Below, piece after piece: positions 4,190-21,167 of a stretch of DNA of 23,163 bases. How positions within the stretch are numbered: the stretch's first letter is position 1; every line of letters starts with the position of its first letter. Source of the DNA: Herpomyces periplanetae (lineage: Eukaryota; Ascomycota; Laboulbeniomycetes; Herpomycetales; Herpomycetaceae); the NCBI GenBank assembly GCA_009733715.1, contig WMKJ01000154.1, forward strand, positions 1 to 23,163. Direction: 5' to 3'. The notes below the pieces were generated by a model, which ran no database searches, was not told the DNA's origin, and saw only the letters and a list, made by a program, of their open reading frames with translations. A program made the translations under genes and the position numbers.

Positions 4190-5190
4190 GAAAAAGGAAA
4201 CTTTAAGCCAACTTTTCCACTTCCCATGATCTCACCTTCATCGTCACCCTTGTCCGTATCCTCATCTTCCCTTTACCCCTCATTCCCGTTAATACGCACC
4301 ATACTATGCCCAAAACTTACGCTTCATATACACTAAATCACCGCAGTATCACACTAAGGAAAATTTCCCTATACAATCATTTTAACGTGCCCTAACTTCT
4401 TCCTTTTGCGCGGGTCTGGTACTTTTTTAAAATTTTAACCTTTTCTCAAACGTTCACACACACATTTCAACAATCTACAATAATTTTTACTCCTTCTGTT
4501 TTAGTATTATATGTCATCAACACTTTCCTTGAATTTGCCTCGCTACTACGTCCCTAAACTCGCTTTGTCATTTCGTAAACCCATCACTCTCCATCGCCCC
4601 TTCCTATTTTATACAATTTATTACCGTTGTCCTCATCGCTTCTCCCCTATTTATTTCCGGATAATTCTTTCTTATCGGACGCAACTTCTTCAAGTATTTT
4701 TTCTCCGATACCGTTTCCCGGTCTTGCGCGCGCCCCTTTTCCTTTTTACTCGTATATATATATCCGACACGACCCCGTTTCAATTCGTTTTCTCCCGATC
4801 CTTTTCACCCTTTTCCCTTTTTCCCATTTCCACTTCTGCCCTCTTTCATCCTTTCTTCCTTCGTTTTACGCGCGCGCATGCAACCGCTTCCTTCTAATTG
4901 ACCTACATTTTCTTACTCGCGCTTCTTAATCGCCATTCTTGCTTTGCTTCTACTTACCCACACTTTTAATCTTAATTTTACCCATACCTTTTCTTTTTGT
5001 CTTCCTTCTAAACTAACTTATAATCCATCTTCCTTCTTATCACCTTACACACTTTCCCCTTCAACGTTAATTTTCCTTCTGGCTGCCTTACCTTGATTTT
5101 AACTCCCCATCTATTTTCCACCAATCTAATCTGTGCTGCACCACATTGCACTATACGGTCTTTTTCTCTCCTGCGTGTATCCATTCTTGT
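4190..5190 (+). promoter_or_regulatory. Pyrimidine-rich leader/promoter tract upstream of the phosphatase gene
   Basis: About 1 kb of plus strand is dominated by C and T (runs such as TTCCTTTTGC, CCTTTTCCCTTTTTCCC) right up to the phosphatase ATG. CT-rich tracts just upstream of translation starts are common in fungal promoters and long 5' leaders, though this one is unusually long. The bias creates spurious long open frames (for example 4511-4897) rich in S, P, F and R, which I do not call genes. The transcription start cannot be placed from sequence. Confidence 0.45.
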
Positions 5191-5197
5191 TATCACC

Positions 5198-6775
5198 ATG
5201 ATGTCTGAACCTTCGGCATCCTCAACCCCTCAACCGGCTAATTCTTCTTTTCTCCTTCGTCCGACTTCACATTCTCCCGCAAAACGGTACCGAAACTTAA
5301 AGAATCTTGCTGTTAATACTGCTTCCGCTACATCGTTCGGTAAAGTTATCTCAACCGCTCAGTTCCCACTTGTTAGTGCCGCAGCTGCTGTTTCATCCAA
5401 TCATGGCTTTCCCGCTACATCCTGTGCTCCCGCATCAAGTGTTGCTACATCTACTACAACATCATCTTACCTTACCTCAGAGCGCAACAATTCTTCCTTA
5501 CCTATGCCTACTCCGTTACTTGGAAAATTCACTACATCTAAACCAAAGAAAAGTAATCGTCTGGGGTTAACTATTGCCACTCCATCAACCTGCGAATTTC
5601 CTTGTCGACTTGATCCATCTACGCCTGCTACTGCCGTCAATAAACCTTCGACACTGGGCTTTGGGAACTTGCAAAAATCGCCTTCTTATCCACTTCCCAC
5701 AGCTAAGTTTCCTCCACTCGGCGGAATGAGCTTACCTACAGTCCGCAAAAATCGGGACAGTTTAATGGATTCCCGCATCTACATATTTCAGTCCATTACA
5801 CCGGCAAAAAATTCCAGATCCGATAAACTTGGAGTTGCGTTTTCCAAACCTCCTCAGTCAGATGAAACTACAATCGCGGCTGGCTGTGATTCGGATGGCG
5901 CCTGGAGCGAACCGAATTTCGACCTGCCTTTGTCTCGTGAACAGAGGCCCGATGCATATCCAAACGGTCCTATTTGTATATGTGAACCTAACGTGGATTT
6001 GTATCTTGAACCTACCGCAGAAATAGCTTCTCGCTATGATGTAGTAATAAACGTAGCCAAGGAAGTTAAAAATCCCTTTAATCCCACAAAATCACCTCCA
6101 GGTTTGGACGAAAATCGAACTGGGTTGCATCATATCAAGCGATTTCTTAGTCCACCTCTTTCTTCGACATCCAAGTTCACCCACAGGAACTACTCTTTAA
6201 ACTTGTCTACTTCACCTTCTACTACGCCACCGCCATCACAAACTTGTCTAGAGCCGCCCATCACATCACCAAATTTCTTAAAGTCCTCTGTCCTTCGATC
6301 AGGCCCACTATCATCATTAAAGACTCGTGGACTACCAGCGTCTCAAGATTGCGGAATTCATCGGTCTCAGTCATTATCGTCTAGGTTAACTACATCTCAA
6401 AACGAAGACATCTTTTCCGCAAGTACTGCGGTAAACGTTAATTCCCAAGTTACCAATGCGCCGCCCGAGTACATTCATATACCCTGGGAGCATAATTCCG
6501 ATATTGTGTCTGACTTGAAAGTTTTAGTTAGGTTGATTGACCAAAAGGTTTCATCACGGAAACGTGTTCTTATCCACTGTCAATGTGGCGTGTCACGGTC
6601 CGCATCACTCGTGGTAGCATATGTTATCTATAAAAACCCTCACTTAAACGTTGCCGATGCTTACAACGTTGTTAAGCGCAGAAGCAAATGGATTGGTCCA
6701 AACATGAATCTTATAATGCAACTTCAAGAGTTTCGCGATGCTTGTCAGCGTGATGAATTCCTAGCATCATCATGA
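5198..6775 (+). CDS. Dual-specificity (MAP kinase) phosphatase, Msg5/Pmp1-like
   Basis: Intronless, 525 aa. It starts at the first of two ATGs in a good context (TCACCATGATG); the frame is open further upstream only through the CT-rich leader. The catalytic P-loop HCQCGVSRSAS (from residue 460, Cys461, Arg467) fits HC-x5-R, followed by the AYNVVKRRS and IGPNMNLIMQLQEF blocks typical of dual-specificity phosphatases. The domain's first part (YPNGPICICEPNVDLYLEP, about 252-270, to NVAKEVKNPF, about 293) is separated from IHIPWEHNSD (about 424-435; the Asp is the likely general acid) by roughly 130 residues of Ser/Pro/Thr-rich sequence. The long N-terminus is also low-complexity and holds KRYRNLKNLAV (29-39), a basic-then-hydrophobic pattern like a MAPK docking site. 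By family it should dephosphorylate the Thr and Tyr of activated MAP kinases (cell-integrity or pheromone type). The exact orthologue is uncertain. Confidence 0.92.
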   Translation: MMSEPSASSTPQPANSSFLLRPTSHSPAKRYRNLKNLAVNTASATSFGKVISTAQFPLVSAAAAVSSNHGFPATSCAPASSVATSTTTSSYLTSERNNSSLPMPTPLLGKFTTSKPKKSNRLGLTIATPSTCEFPCRLDPSTPATAVNKPSTLGFGNLQKSPSYPLPTAKFPPLGGMSLPTVRKNRDSLMDSRIYIFQSITPAKNSRSDKLGVAFSKPPQSDETTIAAGCDSDGAWSEPNFDLPLSREQRPDAYPNGPICICEPNVDLYLEPTAEIASRYDVVINVAKEVKNPFNPTKSPPGLDENRTGLHHIKRFLSPPLSSTSKFTHRNYSLNLSTSPSTTPPPSQTCLEPPITSPNFLKSSVLRSGPLSSLKTRGLPASQDCGIHRSQSLSSRLTTSQNEDIFSASTAVNVNSQVTNAPPEYIHIPWEHNSDIVSDLKVLVRLIDQKVSSRKRVLIHCQCGVSRSASLVVAYVIYKNPHLNVADAYNVVKRRSKWIGPNMNLIMQLQEFRDACQRDEFLASS

Positions 6776-8470: not shown

Positions 8471-10126
8471 ATGGGGGCATTTTTATCCCTCCCATTACTC
8501 TTCATACCAAGCTGTGGTACGGTACGAACGCATAAACTCATCATATACTTACTCGTACACTAACTAAATCCTCTTAGGTTTTGGCTTGTCTTGCTTCAAC
8601 CTGCGGTGCCGCAACTTGTTCAGTTTTATGCCGTTCGTGCAGTAATTGTCAAAATAGGTAAAATCACCAAAGTATCAACTGATCTCCTACTTATCGTAAA
8701 TCAAAATGTCGAGAATCAAAACTCTTACTCTCATACTTTTAGTTTACTCACGAGAATCGCGTATGCTCTAACATTTCTCATCAACTCAATATTATCATGG
8801 CTCATGTTAACAGACTGGGCTGTGAAAAAACTGCAAAAATTAACGCTCAACTCCATGAAAATAACTTGCCTTAACAAGGATTGTTATGGCTTCATCGCCG
8901 TTCATCGAATTAACTTCGCCCTGGGGATTTTACACTTATTCCTTGCTTTACTATTACTCGGTGTGCGGACTTCAAGGAATTCTAGAGCTCCAATACAAAA
9001 TGGTTTTTGGGGCCCCAAATTAATAGCCTGGCTGTCCAGCATCATCATTTGCTTCATGATTCCTGACGCTTTTTTCGTCGTTTGGGGCAATTATTTCGCC
9101 CTCGCCGGTGCTGTATTATTCCCATTACTTGGTTTAATTCTCCTTGTAGATCTTGCTCACGTTTGGGCGGAATATTGCTTGGAACGCATCGAAGATTCAG
9201 ATTCCAATGTGTGGCGATACGTACTAGTCGGCTCAACCTTCGCTATGTATGCTGCATCCATCGGAATGACGGTTGTTATGTACATCTTTTTCGCTCACAA
9301 AGGATGTCATATTAATCAGGCTTCTATCACAATTAACTTAATTCTCTTTGTAATTGTGTCTGCCTTATCCATCAATCCCATCGTTCAATCAGCTAATCCC
9401 AGAGCCGGTTTAGCTCAAGCTGCGATGGTCACCGTATACTGTACTTATCTCACAATGTCTGCTGTTGGTATGGAACCTGATGACAAAAACTGCAATCCAC
9501 TAGTCAGAGGTCACGGAACAAGAACTGCATCAACAGTTTTGGGTGCTATCGTTACTTTCCTAACCATGGCCTATACTACTACTCGCGCCGCAACTTATGG
9601 CATTCCTAATGGAAATCCATACCAATATTCCCGAATTCGTGCATCTCACGATAACTACTCCCCTAGTGCATCATCTTATCATGATCTTATAACTCAACAG
9701 CCTGAATCTCGCCGCAAAATTCGTATAGCAGCTCTTCAAGCTGCCGTTCAAACTGGTGCTTTACCCCCCACTGTCCTCGATGATATAGATGACAATTATA
9801 ATGATGATCCCGATGATGAAAACTCAAGTCCTTCACACTTTTATGCCTCCTCACGAAAACGGAATATGGTTGACGATGAACGTGGTGGTATACAGTATAA
9901 CTATAGTGTGTTTCATATAGTCTTTTTTCTCGCAACCACTTGGGTTGCTACTCTGCTCACAATGAACGTTAATCCTCAGGACAAAGCTGGTGATTTTATA
10001 GCCGTTGGTCGTACGTATTGGGCTAGTTGGGTAAAAATAATCTCTTCGTGGGTTTGTTATGCTCTATTTGCTTGGAGTCTGACTGCACCTGTCATGTTCC
10101 CTGATCGTTTTGAATATTTATCATAA
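8471..10126 (+). CDS. TMS1: Tms1/SERINC family multipass membrane protein
   Basis: Three exons: 8471-8521, 8578-8657 and 8743-10126, giving 504 aa. Intron 1 (8522-8577, GTACGA...CTAAC...TTAG) and intron 2 (8658-8742, GTAAAA...TTTTAG) restore the conserved N-terminus MGAFLSLPLLFIPSCGT-VLACLAS, a cysteine-rich stretch (TCGAATCSVLCRSCSNC) and then TRIAYAL. The rest follows Tms1/SERINC closely: ILSWLMLTDWA, CYGFIAVHRINFALG, IQNGFWGPKLIAWL, VVWGNYFALAGAVLF, LVDLAHVWAEYCLE, TYLTMSAVGMEPDD, YTTTRAA, then an Asp-rich hydrophilic loop (DDIDDNYNDDPDDE), YNYSVFHIVFFLATTWVA and a last helix ending MFPDRFEYLS. About ten or eleven membrane segments are visible. SERINC proteins sit in endosomal, vacuolar or plasma membranes and have been linked to serine-derived lipids; the fungal role is poorly defined. 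Length and sequence look intact. Confidence 0.97.
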
Positions 10127-16193: not shown

Positions 16194-17094
16194 TTAGCTA
16201 GGATTTACATCTTTTTTGGAAATTATTTCTAGTCTAACATCCAGACATTGTTTCAAGTATGGCCTTCTGAGTGAAAAAAAATATATATTTTTTGTTTTTT
16301 CATAAGGACAAATGTCAAATATAACTCTCTTCCTTCGCATAAAGTAATTTCTATTTTGGTAGACAAAAACATTTGGCGAAGATATAAATGGTACGCATGG
16401 AATATTCGATATTTCACCGAAAAATAGCGTAGTTCGAAACGCTGCAACTGAGGACCTCACAGTTTTAATGGTTACCGCATCCTGACGTCGAAAAACCGAT
16501 TCTATTTACGGTTAGAATTGAATATCTGGTATTCGTTACCTTACCCCAAGTAGCACGATCTGGATGTTTTGCTATTAAAATACCTCCTGCGCCGATGCTA
16601 AACTCTAATCTGTTAAATTACCAACTCAGCCATATATGATTTGAAAGGGTTGCTCTGAATCTAAGTTATTACAGGTTTGATTTCAACTCATCTGACTCAT
16701 TCTTAGAAGCAGTATAAGTCACCATGACATTTTGATTGCCAAGTGACAGATAACTTGGTATTATAGTATCAGACTTTTTCAAAGGTTTTGGAGAAAGATA
16801 GAATGATGAAGGTATTGCGTCAAGAAAATTCCTAATTCCATCAAGGTTCTTTGATGTGCTGTTCGAGACATTTGCTGTATTATGTTCAAGATCTGAAGTT
16901 ATGTCATATTCTTGTTTCCAGTGAGGTAAAGGAGATAACTTAATCATTTTGTAAGGTGAATTTTGTGAGCATGAATTATTAAATGCAGCTGGCGAATCGT
17001 CTGCTGGACGCTTTTGGGAGACGGAAGCAATATTTTGATTTATGTTTGGAGGTTGACAAAAAACACCTCCCAGTAAAAACCAGAAAAATATCAT
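16194..17094 (-). CDS. Secreted protein of unknown function, paralogue A (three exons)
   Basis: Exons on the minus strand are 17094-16673, 16609-16545 and 16447-16194, giving 246 aa. Introns are 63 nt (GTAATA...TTTAACAG) and 97 nt (GTAAGG...CCTCAG); both junctions keep frame. A short signal peptide (MIFFWFLLGGVFCQ) leads a polar Ser/Asn-rich region, then SFYLSPKPLKK (97-107). The middle exon encodes LEFSIGAGGILIAKHPDRATW (142-162, split by its introns at both ends). The last exon has NIPCVP (Cys180), FDICPYEKTKNIYFF (Cys209) and LKQCLDVRLEII (Cys230). These blocks line up with the gene at 20060-21167, including intron phases for the last two junctions, which strongly supports the splicing. 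No known domain is recognised. Secretion and cysteines fit an effector-like role, but that is inference. Confidence 0.72.
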
Positions 17095-17960
17095 AGTAAA
17101 TTTTTAAATTGTTTGATAAGTATAAATTTATATAGAGAAGTATAAATCTAGATCTTAATATATTTACAGTTGATATTCAGTAAATTACGGAGTTGACTAA
17201 ATGCCAATCATTACAGACAAACTGACCTGATAATATTAAAGAATTATGCGCATTTTTCGTGCGAAATATTTATTAGTGATTCTATGTAAACGTCAGTGTT
17301 TATTCCGAGATATCGAATAAAATACTTCTATATAAATCACTTGAATATTGTATTTGAAAACTAGTTATAAAAATTAAGCATACCTTTTCATTCTGCAGAA
17401 ATACTCCAGTACCTTGCTGCGTAAATTTTTTAATGAGATATATATAGTAAAATTTCTGTACGCTAGAAAAGGTACAAGTAACGAAGATTGTTATAAAATA
17501 GTGTGTGCTGTCAAATTAGGGAAAAGTGTTACTGTTATAAACCACTTAGCAGCACTTATTCCCTAAAAATTCAGATAGCAACTCTTAGTTAATCATATAT
17601 CTGTGAAATATTGGTAAAACGAAGCTACTCAATAATGAATAATAAACTGTGTCAGTGCCAAAAATTTTTCCCGTTAAGTATGGCAAACATCCACATACAT
17701 TCTAGATAAATTACAGATGAAATGAGCCAGATAGAATAACCAAAATTTTCGTTTAAAACTAAATGTACTACTACTGCGTGACAAATTGCGAGAATAACTT
17801 TTGGCGTGGAAATTTGGAATCCGGAAACTTTTCAAAAAAAATTTGGGAAAATTCAGTTAAAAACATCAAAACGAGCATCAGCACTGTAAAAACAGGTACG
17901 AACGAGATTATGACGTGGCACCCAGCCGTAAAGTCCAAATGCTGAGGCATTCCAGAGTAA
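17095..17960. other. AT-rich upstream region of paralogue A, no gene seen
   Basis: This region should contain the promoter of the minus-strand secreted-protein gene. It is strongly AT-rich with TATA-like strings just upstream of the ATG (around 17,120-17,165). Beyond about 17,740 the composition changes and short frames on both strands (17763-17945 plus, 17771-18043 minus) overlap each other. They show no domain and probably belong to the repeat material that follows. Confidence 0.45.
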
Positions 17961-17970
17961 AACATTATTC

Positions 17971-18280
17971 CGTTACCCGTTGCTTTTGCCCTCTGCTTCC
18001 GTTTCTCGGGAGGTATTCTGGTGCTAACATAATAAGAGATCACCTGATCTGTATTAGATCTACAGTTCTGTTAGGGACCTGTTACTGAAGGCTGAGTGAC
18101 GAGAAAATCCGGCATAGCAAGTATTTGCTAAGCAGATCTCTCACGTGGCACATTATGTGAGGAACACATGACTGAGTAGAACGGAAACGTGGGGAAAGCC
18201 ACATCAGAAAATTTCTTTTTGTGTTAGCACCAGAATACCTCCTTAGCAACAGAAGCAGGAAACTGAAACAACGAGTAGCG
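17971..18280. mobile_element. Inverted repeat with 59 bp arms, possibly broken LTR ends
   Basis: The arms at 17971-18029 and 18222-18280 are inverted copies. The innermost 21 bp (18009-18029 versus 18222-18242) match perfectly and the outer part matches at about two thirds of positions. The spacer is 192 bp. The inner end of each arm reads TGTTAGCACC outward, ending in TAACA on the other strand, which is the usual terminus of Ty1/copia-type LTRs (TG...CA). It could therefore be two LTR pieces of one family in opposite orientation, or a foldback/MITE-like element. No internal coding region is seen and it looks broken and old. A non-autonomous DNA element cannot be excluded. Confidence 0.5.
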
Positions 18281-18790
18281 GAGTGTGAGTCTCGATACGA
18301 ACATAGAAGACGTGAGAGTGTGATGAAATTACCCATAGATAAAGGTCTTTCGTGAAATTAAGTCAATTTCCGAAAAAATTATTCATATGGCAGGTACATG
18401 TGAATACTCACACTCACTATACTCCCTGTTAGATAGGCAATCAATTTCAGTTAGTACTTTGGGTTATGTAATTTTTCAGCAAAGTTTAAATGCTTAAAAA
18501 TCATGTAAGTTGGTTTTTTGAGGTAGTCTTGCAGCTAGTTCGCAGCATTTTGTCGCTTAAGCAGTAATCTTCATCAATCTAGCAATGTGACTGCAGTACT
18601 AATCTTGTTTTATTTAGCTGCTTGGGTTTTGCTAAATCACAAGACGAACTGGTACCGAACCTGCTCTGTATGTTACATTTCACCCTGCAGCTAGGCGTAG
18701 TTTACTTGATAGAACAAGTCACAAGGTAATGTAAATACATAAATAAATGTTGCTACAACCATAAAACAAGCTGTTTGTTTTATTCAATCA
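18281..18790. other. Gene-free stretch between the inverted repeat and repeat copy 1
   Basis: About 0.5 kb of AT-rich sequence with no open frame of note and no clear repeat match inside the window. It probably belongs to older repeat insertions. Confidence 0.4.
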
Positions 18791-19830
18791 GAAAAGGTAA
18801 GAGACGACAATCTTCCAAAAAAACTACAGGTCACATTTGTCAATGCCAACCAGGTACAAGACAAATAATATTTGAGTAAAATATACTAGCTAAGTGGAAC
18901 TTACGTTTTAAAAAAGATTACCTAAATTTAAACTCAAGGACAAGTCGATTCATAGTGAGGGTTAAGGCAGACTTAAATACAAAAGCAACAAGGTGAAAGA
19001 CTCTACGAAAATCCTTACTTCTCCTCATATTCACATTGCATTTCGAGCCTAAACCATCTATCCTTCTTCAAGAAAAACTCATAAACTACTATCCGAAGCT
19101 ATACCTTGACAGACATAGCTATCACATCTTTGCGTGCATGAATAGCATATGTACACTTGCCATTATCTTAGAAGACGAAACAATTACTACTCGATTATTC
19201 CCAAATATTTCAAATACAATATTCTTAGCAAATACGATGTGACATAAGCCATGTTTAAAAGCCATGACAATGCAATCTTACTGAAAGCATTATCTGGTAT
19301 TGAAAATCTAAATCCCAACCATGATGTTTGGCAGGAGCACACAAAGAAACCAAATTTGGGCTTATGGAAATAATATCTTTTCACTAAGAGGGCACTACTA
19401 CCAAAAACCACTTAGAGACCATATAATTAGCCTTAGCTCACTATGACCACTTGGTAATGAAACTAACTGCTTCATACCACTGGATAAAGGAATAACAATC
19501 AATTCGTAACTTCTACTTGAAGCTGTTGAGAGACTAATCATCCTTCAACCTGACTAGAGACACTATTAAACCATTATTAAACCTGACTGCTTCCAACATG
19601 TAGGTGTTTGGACCATCTAGTATCATCCTAGTGCCAATACTTCACGCTCCAATGTTTGCGTATTCTTAACCAGAGTAATACCGGCTCTACATAGGTCAAG
19701 TTATTCATTTTCTATACAAAACAAAGCTAAGCATATATTAAAAAGCTATCATTCATAATTTCCAAATGCAAGCCAAGGAAACCAAAACATCAGACTATAT
19801 CGAACGCTTCTTTATTCTAACAATTAGTTC
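18790..19830. repeat. Dispersed repeat, copy 1 (diverged)
   Basis: This segment matches 21690-22710 in the same orientation through a chain of similar blocks. Examples are a TA-CTAGCTA region (about 18,885 versus 21,757), CAAGGTGAA/CGAGGTGAA (about 18,990 versus 21,870), AACTACTATC (about 19,084 versus 21,961), CTGAAAGCATTATC (about 19,280 versus 22,160) and CAATACTTCACGCTCC/CAACACTTCACTCCTC (about 19,636 versus 22,515). The copies differ by many substitutions and indels, so the repeat is old. No intact frame remains. The class is unsettled; a decayed retroelement interior is possible because copy 2 continues into a reverse-transcriptase-like trace. Confidence 0.6.
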
Positions 19831-20059
19831 CATCTATTGTGTTGTCTGTAACTTGCAACATCCCTCATACATGCAATTTATTAGATAGCCCGAGCTCTAA
19901 AGTGCATGAACACAGTTTTTTGAAATAACAAATGTTTGACCGAATCTTTCACCTATACTCCAGGACCGTAAAAGTTAATTGTACAAATATGTTATATATC
20001 ATTTTTGTTATCAAAATATTATTACAGAAAACTTAAGTGCATTTGCAATTATCTTTTAT
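19831..20059. other. Downstream flank of paralogue B
   Basis: Short AT-rich stretch holding the presumed 3' UTR and polyadenylation region of the minus-strand gene (TA-rich around 20,000-20,055). Nothing else is seen. Confidence 0.4.
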
Positions 20060-21167
20060 TTATTTATTTGCAAATATCATGATTAGTTGGAAACTTTTGC
20101 AGCGTTGGCTACAAGTGTGTTTTGCAAAAAGAAAGTAGTCAATATTATTTAGAGTGCAAAATGTAAATGCACCACCAGCAGTTTTATTATACACAAGTTT
20201 TTGCCTTTTCAGTGACTCATATTGTTTCATACGTATCTCATAAGATGTATCAGACTTATGTTTATATCCTAGCCTTGGTGCATATTTTACATATTCTGCC
20301 ACAAGGTTGTTCGATTTTCGAGGTATCGGTGGACACGGCTGGTTAAATATTGGTTCTAAATTCAAGTTAATAAGTTAAAAACAATGAAATTAATCTTTTT
20401 ACCCCAAGTATCAGAATTTTTTCTCTTTGAAATCAGATTTCCATCGTTAAAAGAAAATTTTAGTCTATAGTTGTTAGTTATAAAATATATATATGTTCAT
20501 TTACATACCTGGAATCATCATCAATTTTCGAGTAAAACATTGGGTCCGCCTTTATCATTATTCTATCATCATTGCTGAGATAGACAAAGAAATTATTTGA
20601 GGAGCAAATCTTTCGCCTAATCAGTGTTTTGCAAGGTGCTGGGCAAAGGTAGAATTCGGCAATAGATGGCTTTAAGCTATTTCCTAATTATATTGTAAGC
20701 ATTACTATTGAAAAGTGAAATTATTTTTTACCTGTAGTAGTCGATTGAACATTTGTGTTTATCGGTTCTATATAGTCGCATTGTTCTATTGGGACATTGA
20801 GCTCGGTTTCCAGACTTTCCATCATGAATGTATTTTGATAATTCGGGTTCAATGCACTCTGATGATAATTCGGGTTCAATGCACTCTGATGATAATTCGG
20901 GCTCAATGTACTTTGATGATAATTCGAGTTCAATGCAAGTCCTGAATAATCATCAATTGGGCACAATTCTTGTGAGCTATGTGATTCGCAGACAGAGTAG
21001 CTTGGCAAATATGTATTTATGGGCTCATGGTACACAGTATTCGGATAGGTACCGTGTCCTGTTTTATCTCCTGGCTGAGAATGGGTCCCCGTTCCGAATA
21101 ATATGACGATTATAAAAATTGATTGCACAACGTATAATTTTATAGATATCCGATAAATAGAACACAT
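20060..21167 (-). CDS. Secreted protein of unknown function with 9-residue repeats, paralogue B (four exons)
   Basis: Minus-strand exons are 21167-20732, 20683-20509, 20464-20403 and 20355-20060, giving 322 aa. Three tiny introns (48, 44 and 47 nt) have GTAAAA, GTATGT and GTAAAA donors and TAG acceptors, all phase-consistent; intron 2 has a CTAAC branch-like site. The N-terminus has a hydrophobic signal (to about residue 30, ending near THSQPGD). Residues about 76-110 are a tandem repeat of NYHQSALNP. Exon 2 gives EFYLCPAPCKTLIRRKICSS (155-174), a Y-x-C motif plus two more cysteines. Exon 3 gives LKFSFNDGNLISKRKNSDTW (205-224). Exon 4 gives FNQPCPPIP (Cys232), FTFCTLNNIDYFLF (Cys291) and TCSQRCKSFQLIMI (Cys306, Cys310). 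It is a clear paralogue of 16194-17094. The Y-x-C motif after a signal peptide recalls powdery-mildew candidate effectors, but the protein is longer, has more introns, and the motif lies mid-protein. The function is unknown. Confidence 0.75.
20836..20943. repeat. Tandem 27 bp repeat, about four units, inside paralogue B exon 1
   Basis: Units start at 20836, 20863, 20890 and 20917 with the shared core TGATAATTCGGGTTCAATG. The first two units are identical and the other two carry a few changes. Because 27 is a multiple of three, the repeat encodes a 9-residue unit (minus strand, NYHQSALNP) without disturbing the frame. The nearly identical copies suggest recent slippage or unequal exchange. Paralogue A has no such array. 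Confidence 0.9.

What the first reader, a model, noticed from the sequence alone, without database searches (positions are those of the whole stretch)
16194..21167. Two paralogous intron-split secreted proteins of an unrecognised family
Splice reconstruction on the minus strand gives 246 aa (16194-17094) and 322 aa (20060-21167) proteins. Shared features: a signal peptide; FYLSP/FYLCP; a middle exon LEFSIGAGG...ATW versus LKFSFNDGN...DTW, entered after two codon bases and left after one in both genes; and a last exon with NIPCVP/NQPCPP, DIC/TFC before NIYFF/NIDYF, and LKQC/SQRC. Independent agreement of exon boundaries, phases and residues makes chance very unlikely. I recognise no described domain. 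In a repeat-rich region of a probable plant-pathogenic fungus this looks like an effector-type family.
Basis: partly seen in the sequence, partly recalled or inferred. Interest (0 to 1): 0.82.

Follow-up and report, generated by a model that had tools for sequence, protein, structure and literature searches.

The report
New split-gene family of secreted proteins
An unidentified fungus carries about twenty very different copies of a gene for a probably secreted protein, recognisable as one family because they share the same unusual pattern of gene pieces; the protein libraries searched hold no match, and the proteins look like ones used at the contact with a host or on the cell surface.

Summary
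The two genes are real paralogs in a larger family. Exon searches of the window's own assembly (13.79 Mb, 220 contigs) give 20 loci on 11 contigs; the last search added none. In 19 of 19 assessable loci a 62- or 65-nt exon is entered in phase 2 and left in phase 1. All 18 last exons without in-frame stops keep two cysteines and a leucine. Corrections: gene 1 encodes 264, not 246, residues; the NIPCVP/NQPCPP match is out of register. Pfam, the PDB and a length-limited search of 5.8 billion proteins give no confident relative. A weak match to the PIR1-like cell-wall domain hints at an origin. The Erysiphales guess is not supported: among the 120 listed hits of the neighbouring Serinc protein none exceeds 64% identity and no named one is a powdery mildew (class labels recalled). 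Most likely a lineage-specific, fast-diverging, secreted effector-type family. Secretion and function are inferred; there are no expression data.

The parts
16673..17094 (-). gene 1 exon 1: hydrophobic signal-peptide-like start, linker, FYLSP..YLSL segment; exits in phase 2
16610..16672 (-). gene 1 intron 1 (63 nt, GT..AG)
16545..16609 (-). gene 1 middle exon, 65 nt, phase 2 in, phase 1 out (LEFSIGAGG..ATW)
16194..16501 (-). gene 1 last exon: conserved C-terminal part with ICPY..IYFF..QC and stop; 264 aa in all
20732..21167 (-). gene 2 exon 1: hydrophobic signal-peptide-like start and linker with a 9-residue repeat; exits in phase 1
20836..20937 (-). 27-nt tandem array (3.8 copies) coding the 9-residue repeat in gene 2's linker
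20684..20731 (-). gene 2 intron 1 (48 nt)
20509..20683 (-). gene 2 exon 2: FYLCP..FFVYL segment; exits in phase 2
20465..20508 (-). gene 2 intron 2 (44 nt)
20403..20464 (-). gene 2 middle exon, 62 nt, phase 2 in, phase 1 out (LKFSFNDGN..DTW)
20356..20402 (-). gene 2 intron 3 (47 nt)
20060..20355 (-). gene 2 last exon: conserved C-terminal part with FTFC..DYFLF..RC and stop; 322 aa in all

Best explanation
The two genes belong to one multigene family of probably secreted proteins with at least 20 loci in this fungal genome. Each typically encodes a signal-peptide-like start, a quickly changing, often S/T/N/P/Q-rich or repeat-bearing linker, and one conserved C-terminal domain (about 160-170 residues, an estimate from exon lengths; strand-rich in the last-exon models) encoded by three exons with fixed phases and holding a conserved cysteine pair. 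Most likely the preprotein is secreted, the linker is a flexible stalk, and the disulfide-bonded domain acts outside the fungal cell at the contact with a host. Duplicate copies keep the core, the cysteines and the splice frame while almost everything else is replaced, the pattern expected of effector-type proteins under pressure to change. Shown: the family, the gene structure, the divergence, two broken copies. Inferred: secretion, the disulfide, the host-facing role.
For: 20 loci from exon searches of the own assembly, none new in the last search. A search with the FYL exon of one member returned, besides itself, two other members' FYL exons (E 9.7e-5 and 0.043) and nothing else. Middle exon of 62/65 nt with phase 2 in and phase 1 out in 19 of 19 assessable loci (in at least five loci it was located by eye using the expected pattern). 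Motif scan without other hits in 49.7 kb. Two cysteines and a leucine invariant in 18 of 18 last exons without in-frame stops, at a mean column identity of 31%. Hydrophobic starts in 13 of 13 first exons examined, out of 20 loci (best 9-residue Kyte-Doolittle mean 1.9-3.6; start Met chosen by me), linkers 30-57% S/T/N/P/Q (no control composition computed). 15 of 20 loci share a contig with another member. Two copies have in-frame stops, L004 and L006. GH28 polygalacturonases were not found in the assembly, compatible with a host-dependent life but no proof.
Against: No expression data, no host known, organism unidentified, no signal-peptide predictor run. No selection test was made (paralogs too diverged), so diversifying selection is not shown. 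The linkers and the weak PIR1-like match fit wall-bound surface proteins as well. AlphaFold2 models of the last exon alone are of medium to low confidence (pLDDT 71.5 and 69.5, pTM 0.59 and 0.47); the first has no PDB match. The lineage restriction rests on one limited search.
Confidence: 0.5

Rival explanations
1. The family is a set of wall- or surface-bound proteins derived from the PIR1-like mannoprotein domain; it shapes the fungal surface (coat, adhesion, variable surface) rather than acting on host cells.
For: PIR1-like_C (PF22799) was named and searched, before the 16 last exons were scanned together; one of 16 then matched it weakly in register (L017, E 0.22, 12.7 bits). The family profile aligns to the assembly's own PIR1-like protein (C110) over 29 residues around FxFCPYN..YFLV: score 22.2, P 0.0014, against at most 19.1 in 500 shuffles and 16.8 in the 56 control pieces other than family last exons (some of these pieces are first exons of members); with other profiles P 0.003-0.008. 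The two invariant cysteines are 19 residues apart in gene 2 and L017 and 21 in gene 1, against 20 in the PIR1-like protein and 17 for the C195-C212 pair of ScPir4 (PMC8975586, passages). Both kinds have a signal peptide, a repetitive middle and a C-terminal domain.
Against: Far below the Pfam cut-off of 27.6 bits; four other families matched one member each in the same scan (best E 0.035-0.22), and lax scans before one search gave no PIR1-like match. hhalign probability only 17%. The DGQ core occurs in 1 of 16 FYL exons, QFQFD in none, and neither in 18 last exons (the assembly's PIR1-like protein has DGQ but no QFQFD either).
Confidence: 0.3
2. [quoted passage not shown]
For: Y-x-C occurs at the domain start of gene 2 and two relatives (3 of 16 FYL exons). 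51 of 54 Bgh genes of that superfamily share one intron, always phase 1 and 45-76 nt (PMC2886064, passages); the second domain intron here is also phase 1 and 43-63 nt where read.
Against: Two fixed domain introns instead of one; YxC absent from 13 of 16 FYL exons; no ribonuclease family in Pfam scans of 16 last exons; no PDB chain at E up to 10, although an RNase-like effector structure is published (PMC6464244, abstract start in the listing; its presence in the searched copy was not checked); organism apparently not Erysiphales.
Confidence: 0.06
3. Secreted proteins for self/non-self or microbe-microbe interaction, not directed at a host.
For: The same secreted, diversified architecture would be expected; the lifestyle is unknown.
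Against: No Pfam domain of a lytic or antimicrobial kind in the exons scanned.
Confidence: 0.1
4. Chance: the shared exons and phases are a gene-modelling artefact.
For: The two last exons alone are not significantly similar.
Against: 19 of 19 loci with the same exon pattern, no other hits in the motif scan, subgroup profiles matching at P 3.4e-12 and 5.6e-9.
Confidence: 0.01

Closest known systems
Powdery-mildew Y/F/WxC candidate effector (CSEP/RALPH) superfamily
   Same: Large set of secreted, highly diverged paralogs held together by fixed intron position and phase, short introns (45-76 nt there, 43-63 nt for the two domain introns here where read), often a cysteine near the C-terminus (PMC2886064 and PMC3582587, passages).
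   Different: Two domain introns (phases 2 and 1) around a 62/65-nt exon rather than one phase-1 intron; long variable linker before the domain; YxC in only 3 of 16 FYL exons; no ribonuclease match; organism apparently not Erysiphales.
PIR1-like cell-wall mannoproteins (PF22799, PIR1-like_C)
   Same: Signal peptide, repetitive or low-complexity middle, C-terminal domain with an F-x-x-C-P....Y-type motif and a similar cysteine spacing.
   Different: No significant Pfam score, DGQ in 1 of 16 FYL exons and no QFQFD, two instead of four conserved cysteines, and domain introns, whereas the assembly's own PIR1-like match covers the whole model in one open frame.

Membership tests
[quoted passage not shown]
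   Absent from gene 1's FYL exon; present in 3 of 16 FYL exons, gene 2 among them, where it follows a linker of over 100 residues. F/YxC also occurs within 6 of 18 last exons
[quoted passage not shown]
   Two domain introns, phase 2 and phase 1, in 19 of 19
Y/F/WxC (RALPH-type) powdery-mildew effectors | ribonuclease-like sequence or fold | tested here: inconclusive
PIR1-like cell-wall proteins (PF22799) | PIR1-like_C domain above the curated cut-off (27.6 bits) | tested here: not met
   12.7 bits in 1 of 16 last exons, no match in the others; L046 and L054 were not scanned
PIR1-like cell-wall proteins (PF22799) | DGQ repeat core and QFQFD motif | tested here: not met
   DGQ in 1 of 16 FYL exons, QFQFD in none; neither in 18 last exons; linkers were not scanned
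PIR1-like cell-wall proteins (PF22799) | four conserved cysteines in two disulfides | tested here: not met
   Two conserved cysteines in 18 last exons; none conserved in the FYL exons
PIR1-like cell-wall proteins (PF22799) | alkali-labile bond to beta-1,3-glucan | not testable with these tools
   needs wall fractionation
Secreted effector (functional class) | N-terminal signal peptide | tested here: inconclusive
   Hydrophobic start in 13 of 13 first exons examined, of 20 loci; hydropathy only, no trained predictor
Secreted effector (functional class) | expression during host colonisation and effect on the host | not testable with these tools
   no RNA data, host unknown
Secreted effector (functional class) | lineage restriction | tested here: inconclusive
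   136 candidates in the protein collection, none at E up to 1; limited to proteins of roughly 60-200 residues (if the length goes by the first member) and to shared 5-residue words

The most novel reading that the evidence does not exclude
A fungal lineage without close sequenced relatives has turned a PIR-type cell-wall protein domain into a diversified secreted arsenal: the wall-anchoring repeats became free, fast-changing linkers, the domain gained two fixed introns around a 65-nt exon, and the copies spread and diverged until only the splice frame, the strand pattern and one disulfide remain.
Probability: 0.22. Interest if true: 0.68.

Novelty: new member of a known kind. Interest (0 to 1): 0.45.

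Why it matters
It adds an apparently undescribed family to the effector-like superfamilies whose common origin shows more clearly in intron position and phase than in sequence. The splice-flanked micro-exon is a DNA search key that had no false hits in 49.7 kb, so the family's extent and age can be tested in related genomes where protein similarity is weak. If the PIR1-like link holds, it would show where such a family came from.

Tried and rejected
Erysiphales origin: not supported (the paper on the compact mildew P. polyspora was seen in passages). RNase-like effector: no sequence evidence. Weak Pfam matches (NOMO_3rd, CR4_N, Myosin_TH1, BT_3535-like, Zn_ribbon_DnaG): each in a single member, taken as chance. 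PDB matches of single last exons (ribosomal protein L18, T-cell receptors, PurE and others): E 0.079 and above, rejected. C166:55279 (L012) from the gene 2 search: E 0.086, an 828-residue open frame, dropped. Homologs of the assembly's PIR1-like protein: 6 candidates, none at E up to 1e-5, so no deep PIR profile could be built; its own PDB matches (best E 0.0094, antibody light chains) were taken as chance. Fold search of the first last-exon model: nothing; the second model was not searched. tRNA and Rfam: nothing in the window. Organism: one-gene tree inconclusive; four paper searches on candidate lineages, guessed from recall, did not identify it (listings only). Paper searches for a described family of this structure (listings with abstract starts), and passages of PMC3582587, PMC6759760, PMC8975586 and PMC2886064, showed none; that is no proof of absence. 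Left out before counts: L004 (contig end, in-frame stop) and L006 (in-frame stops) are in none of the last-exon alignments; L004 is not among the 19, L006 is. L046 and L054 entered only alignment A8, L046 from an arbitrary start and L021 without its tail. In A3, A7 and the search, L021 lacked its first 21 last-exon residues by a coordinate slip of mine.
Full report
Observation. The two minus-strand genes read as described, with one correction. Gene 1 has exons 17094-16673, 16609-16545 and 16501-16194 (introns 63 and 43 nt; 264 aa). Gene 2 has exons 21167-20732, 20683-20509, 20464-20403 and 20355-20060 (introns 48, 44 and 47 nt; 322 aa). All introns are GT-AG and no exon holds a premature stop in frame. 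The 43-nt intron is preferred because most relatives begin the last exon with a split E codon, one residue and a hydrophobic-aromatic pair, as gene 1 does with this acceptor; no RNA confirms it. The claimed NIPCVP/NQPCPP correspondence is out of register, and in NIYFF/NIDYF only the YF is aligned.

Is it more than chance? The last exons of the two genes are not significantly similar to each other (BLASTP E 1.8). The family makes the link. Searches of the own assembly with the two last exons found relatives at E 3.9e-15 (gene 1) and 7.8e-11 (gene 2). Searches with further members raised the number to 20 loci on 11 contigs (C24, C36, C52 x2, C56 x4, C95 x3, C108 x2, C130, C160 x2, C166 x2, C178, C189); a last search added none. 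Loci with weak first hits (for example C56:9153, E 0.05, and C178, E 0.013) were accepted because of their exon pattern and later hits. Profiles of three subgroups match one another at P 3.4e-12 (gene 1 group to central group), 5.6e-9 (gene 2 group to central group) and 8e-4 (gene 1 group to gene 2 group). The FYL exon of one member, searched alone, returned only itself and the FYL exons of two other members.

Gene structure. In 19 of 19 loci with sequence upstream of the last exon there is a middle exon of 65 nt (16 loci) or 62 nt (3 loci: gene 2, L010, L023), entered in phase 2 and left in phase 1, between AG and GT. In at least five loci (L007, L017, L020, L021, L046), and for the exit in L011, I placed this exon by looking for the pattern, so these are not independent tests. 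The scan is freer of this: over both strands of 49.7 kb a strict form of the motif hits 7 of the 9 known middle exons there, a looser form 8 of 9, and neither hits anything else; the motif was drawn from these same genes. The two introns flanking this exon are 43-63 nt with the sites I accepted; alternative sites exist in several loci.

Protein anatomy. Thirteen first exons, of 20 loci, were examined; all begin with a hydrophobic stretch, followed by a linker of 71-322 residues with 30-57% S/T/N/P/Q (start Met chosen by me, no control composition). Linkers carry private repeats: a 9-residue repeat in gene 2, a long FPAKPFPEN-type repeat in L032 and a duplicated segment in L021. The conserved part begins with F-Y-L-x-P-like residues (F invariant and L nearly invariant in 16 FYL exons), continues through the middle exon (L-x-F ... 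W in most), and ends in the last exon with F-x-x-C-P-Y-like ... Y-F-[LF] ... C ... L. Two cysteines and this leucine are invariant in the 18 last exons without in-frame stops. The whole domain was not folded.

Known families. No Pfam family reaches its cut-off in the family exons scanned, no PDB chain matches the 16-member profile at E up to 10, and the 5.8-billion-protein collection gave 136 candidates, none at E up to 1. That search reached only proteins of roughly 60-200 residues sharing 5-residue words, so full-length relatives of 250-320 residues were not covered. One lead remains. The C-terminal motif resembles PIR1-like_C (PF22799). One of 16 members matches it in register at E 0.22; four other families matched one member each at E 0.035-0.22 in the same scan, so the E-value alone means little, but PF22799 had been singled out before. 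The family profile aligns to the assembly's own PIR1-like protein over 29 residues with a score of 22.2, against at most 19.1 in 500 shuffles and 16.8 in 56 other open-frame pieces; with other profiles P is 0.003-0.008. hhalign's probability is only 17%. This is suggestive, not proof. Defining features of PIR proteins (Pfam score, QFQFD, four cysteines; DGQ in all but one FYL exon) are not met, so the family is not filed there.

Organism. The assembly is unnamed. For Serinc, a neighbour in the window, the 120 listed of 1,310 hits are 57-64% identical by BLASTP, and no named one is from Erysiphales (classes recalled). In a one-gene tree it sits on a long branch, nearest to Dothideomycetes by path, but grouping it with Leotiomycetes is not rejected (p 0.163). 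GH28 polygalacturonases were not found at E up to 0.001. The powdery-mildew label is unsupported and plant parasitism unproven.

Mechanism. Best supported: a secreted, disulfide-pinned, strand-rich domain on a flexible stalk, multiplied and diversified for contact with a host (0.5). Main rival: a wall or surface protein family of PIR origin (0.3). The two could be one story, in which a wall domain was re-used as a secreted effector. Secretion, the disulfide and the host role are inferences.

Novelty. The family itself was not found in the libraries and paper searches used. Its kind, a secreted family held together by intron phase, is known from Blumeria, where 51 of 54 genes had one intron, always in phase 1 (PMC2886064, passages seen). 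The exon pattern here is different.

Noticed in passing
window 8738-10126 (+): Serinc/TMS1 gene whose 120 listed relatives are only 57-64% identical, with named ones spread over Dothideomycetes, Leotiomycetes, Eurotiomycetes and lichen fungi: the organism seems to be a lineage without close sequenced relatives.
   Followed up: partly
window 17969-18051 and 18200-18282: Inverted repeat with 83-nt arms, 76% complementary, 148 nt apart, between the two genes; could be a decayed MITE-like element.
   Followed up: no
L013 (assembly contig C110:147442-147666, -): Only PIR1-like_C match (E 1.7e-9) found in the assembly, in an open frame with an acidic tail and a cysteine-rich end; its first 130 residues had no hit at E up to 1e-5 among 6 candidates of the protein collection.
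   Followed up: partly
L032 (C166:82994-83194 region): Family member with a linker of over 300 residues, a large part of it FPAKPFPEN-type repeats.
   Followed up: no
L004 (C56:22479-22739) and L006 (C95:8160-8375): Two copies with in-frame stops; L004 also lies at a contig end, next to L003 in opposite orientation.
   Followed up: no
window 5024-6775 (+): Open frame with a dual-specificity phosphatase domain (DSPc, E 1.3e-24) at residues 466-572 after a long N-terminal part.
   Followed up: no
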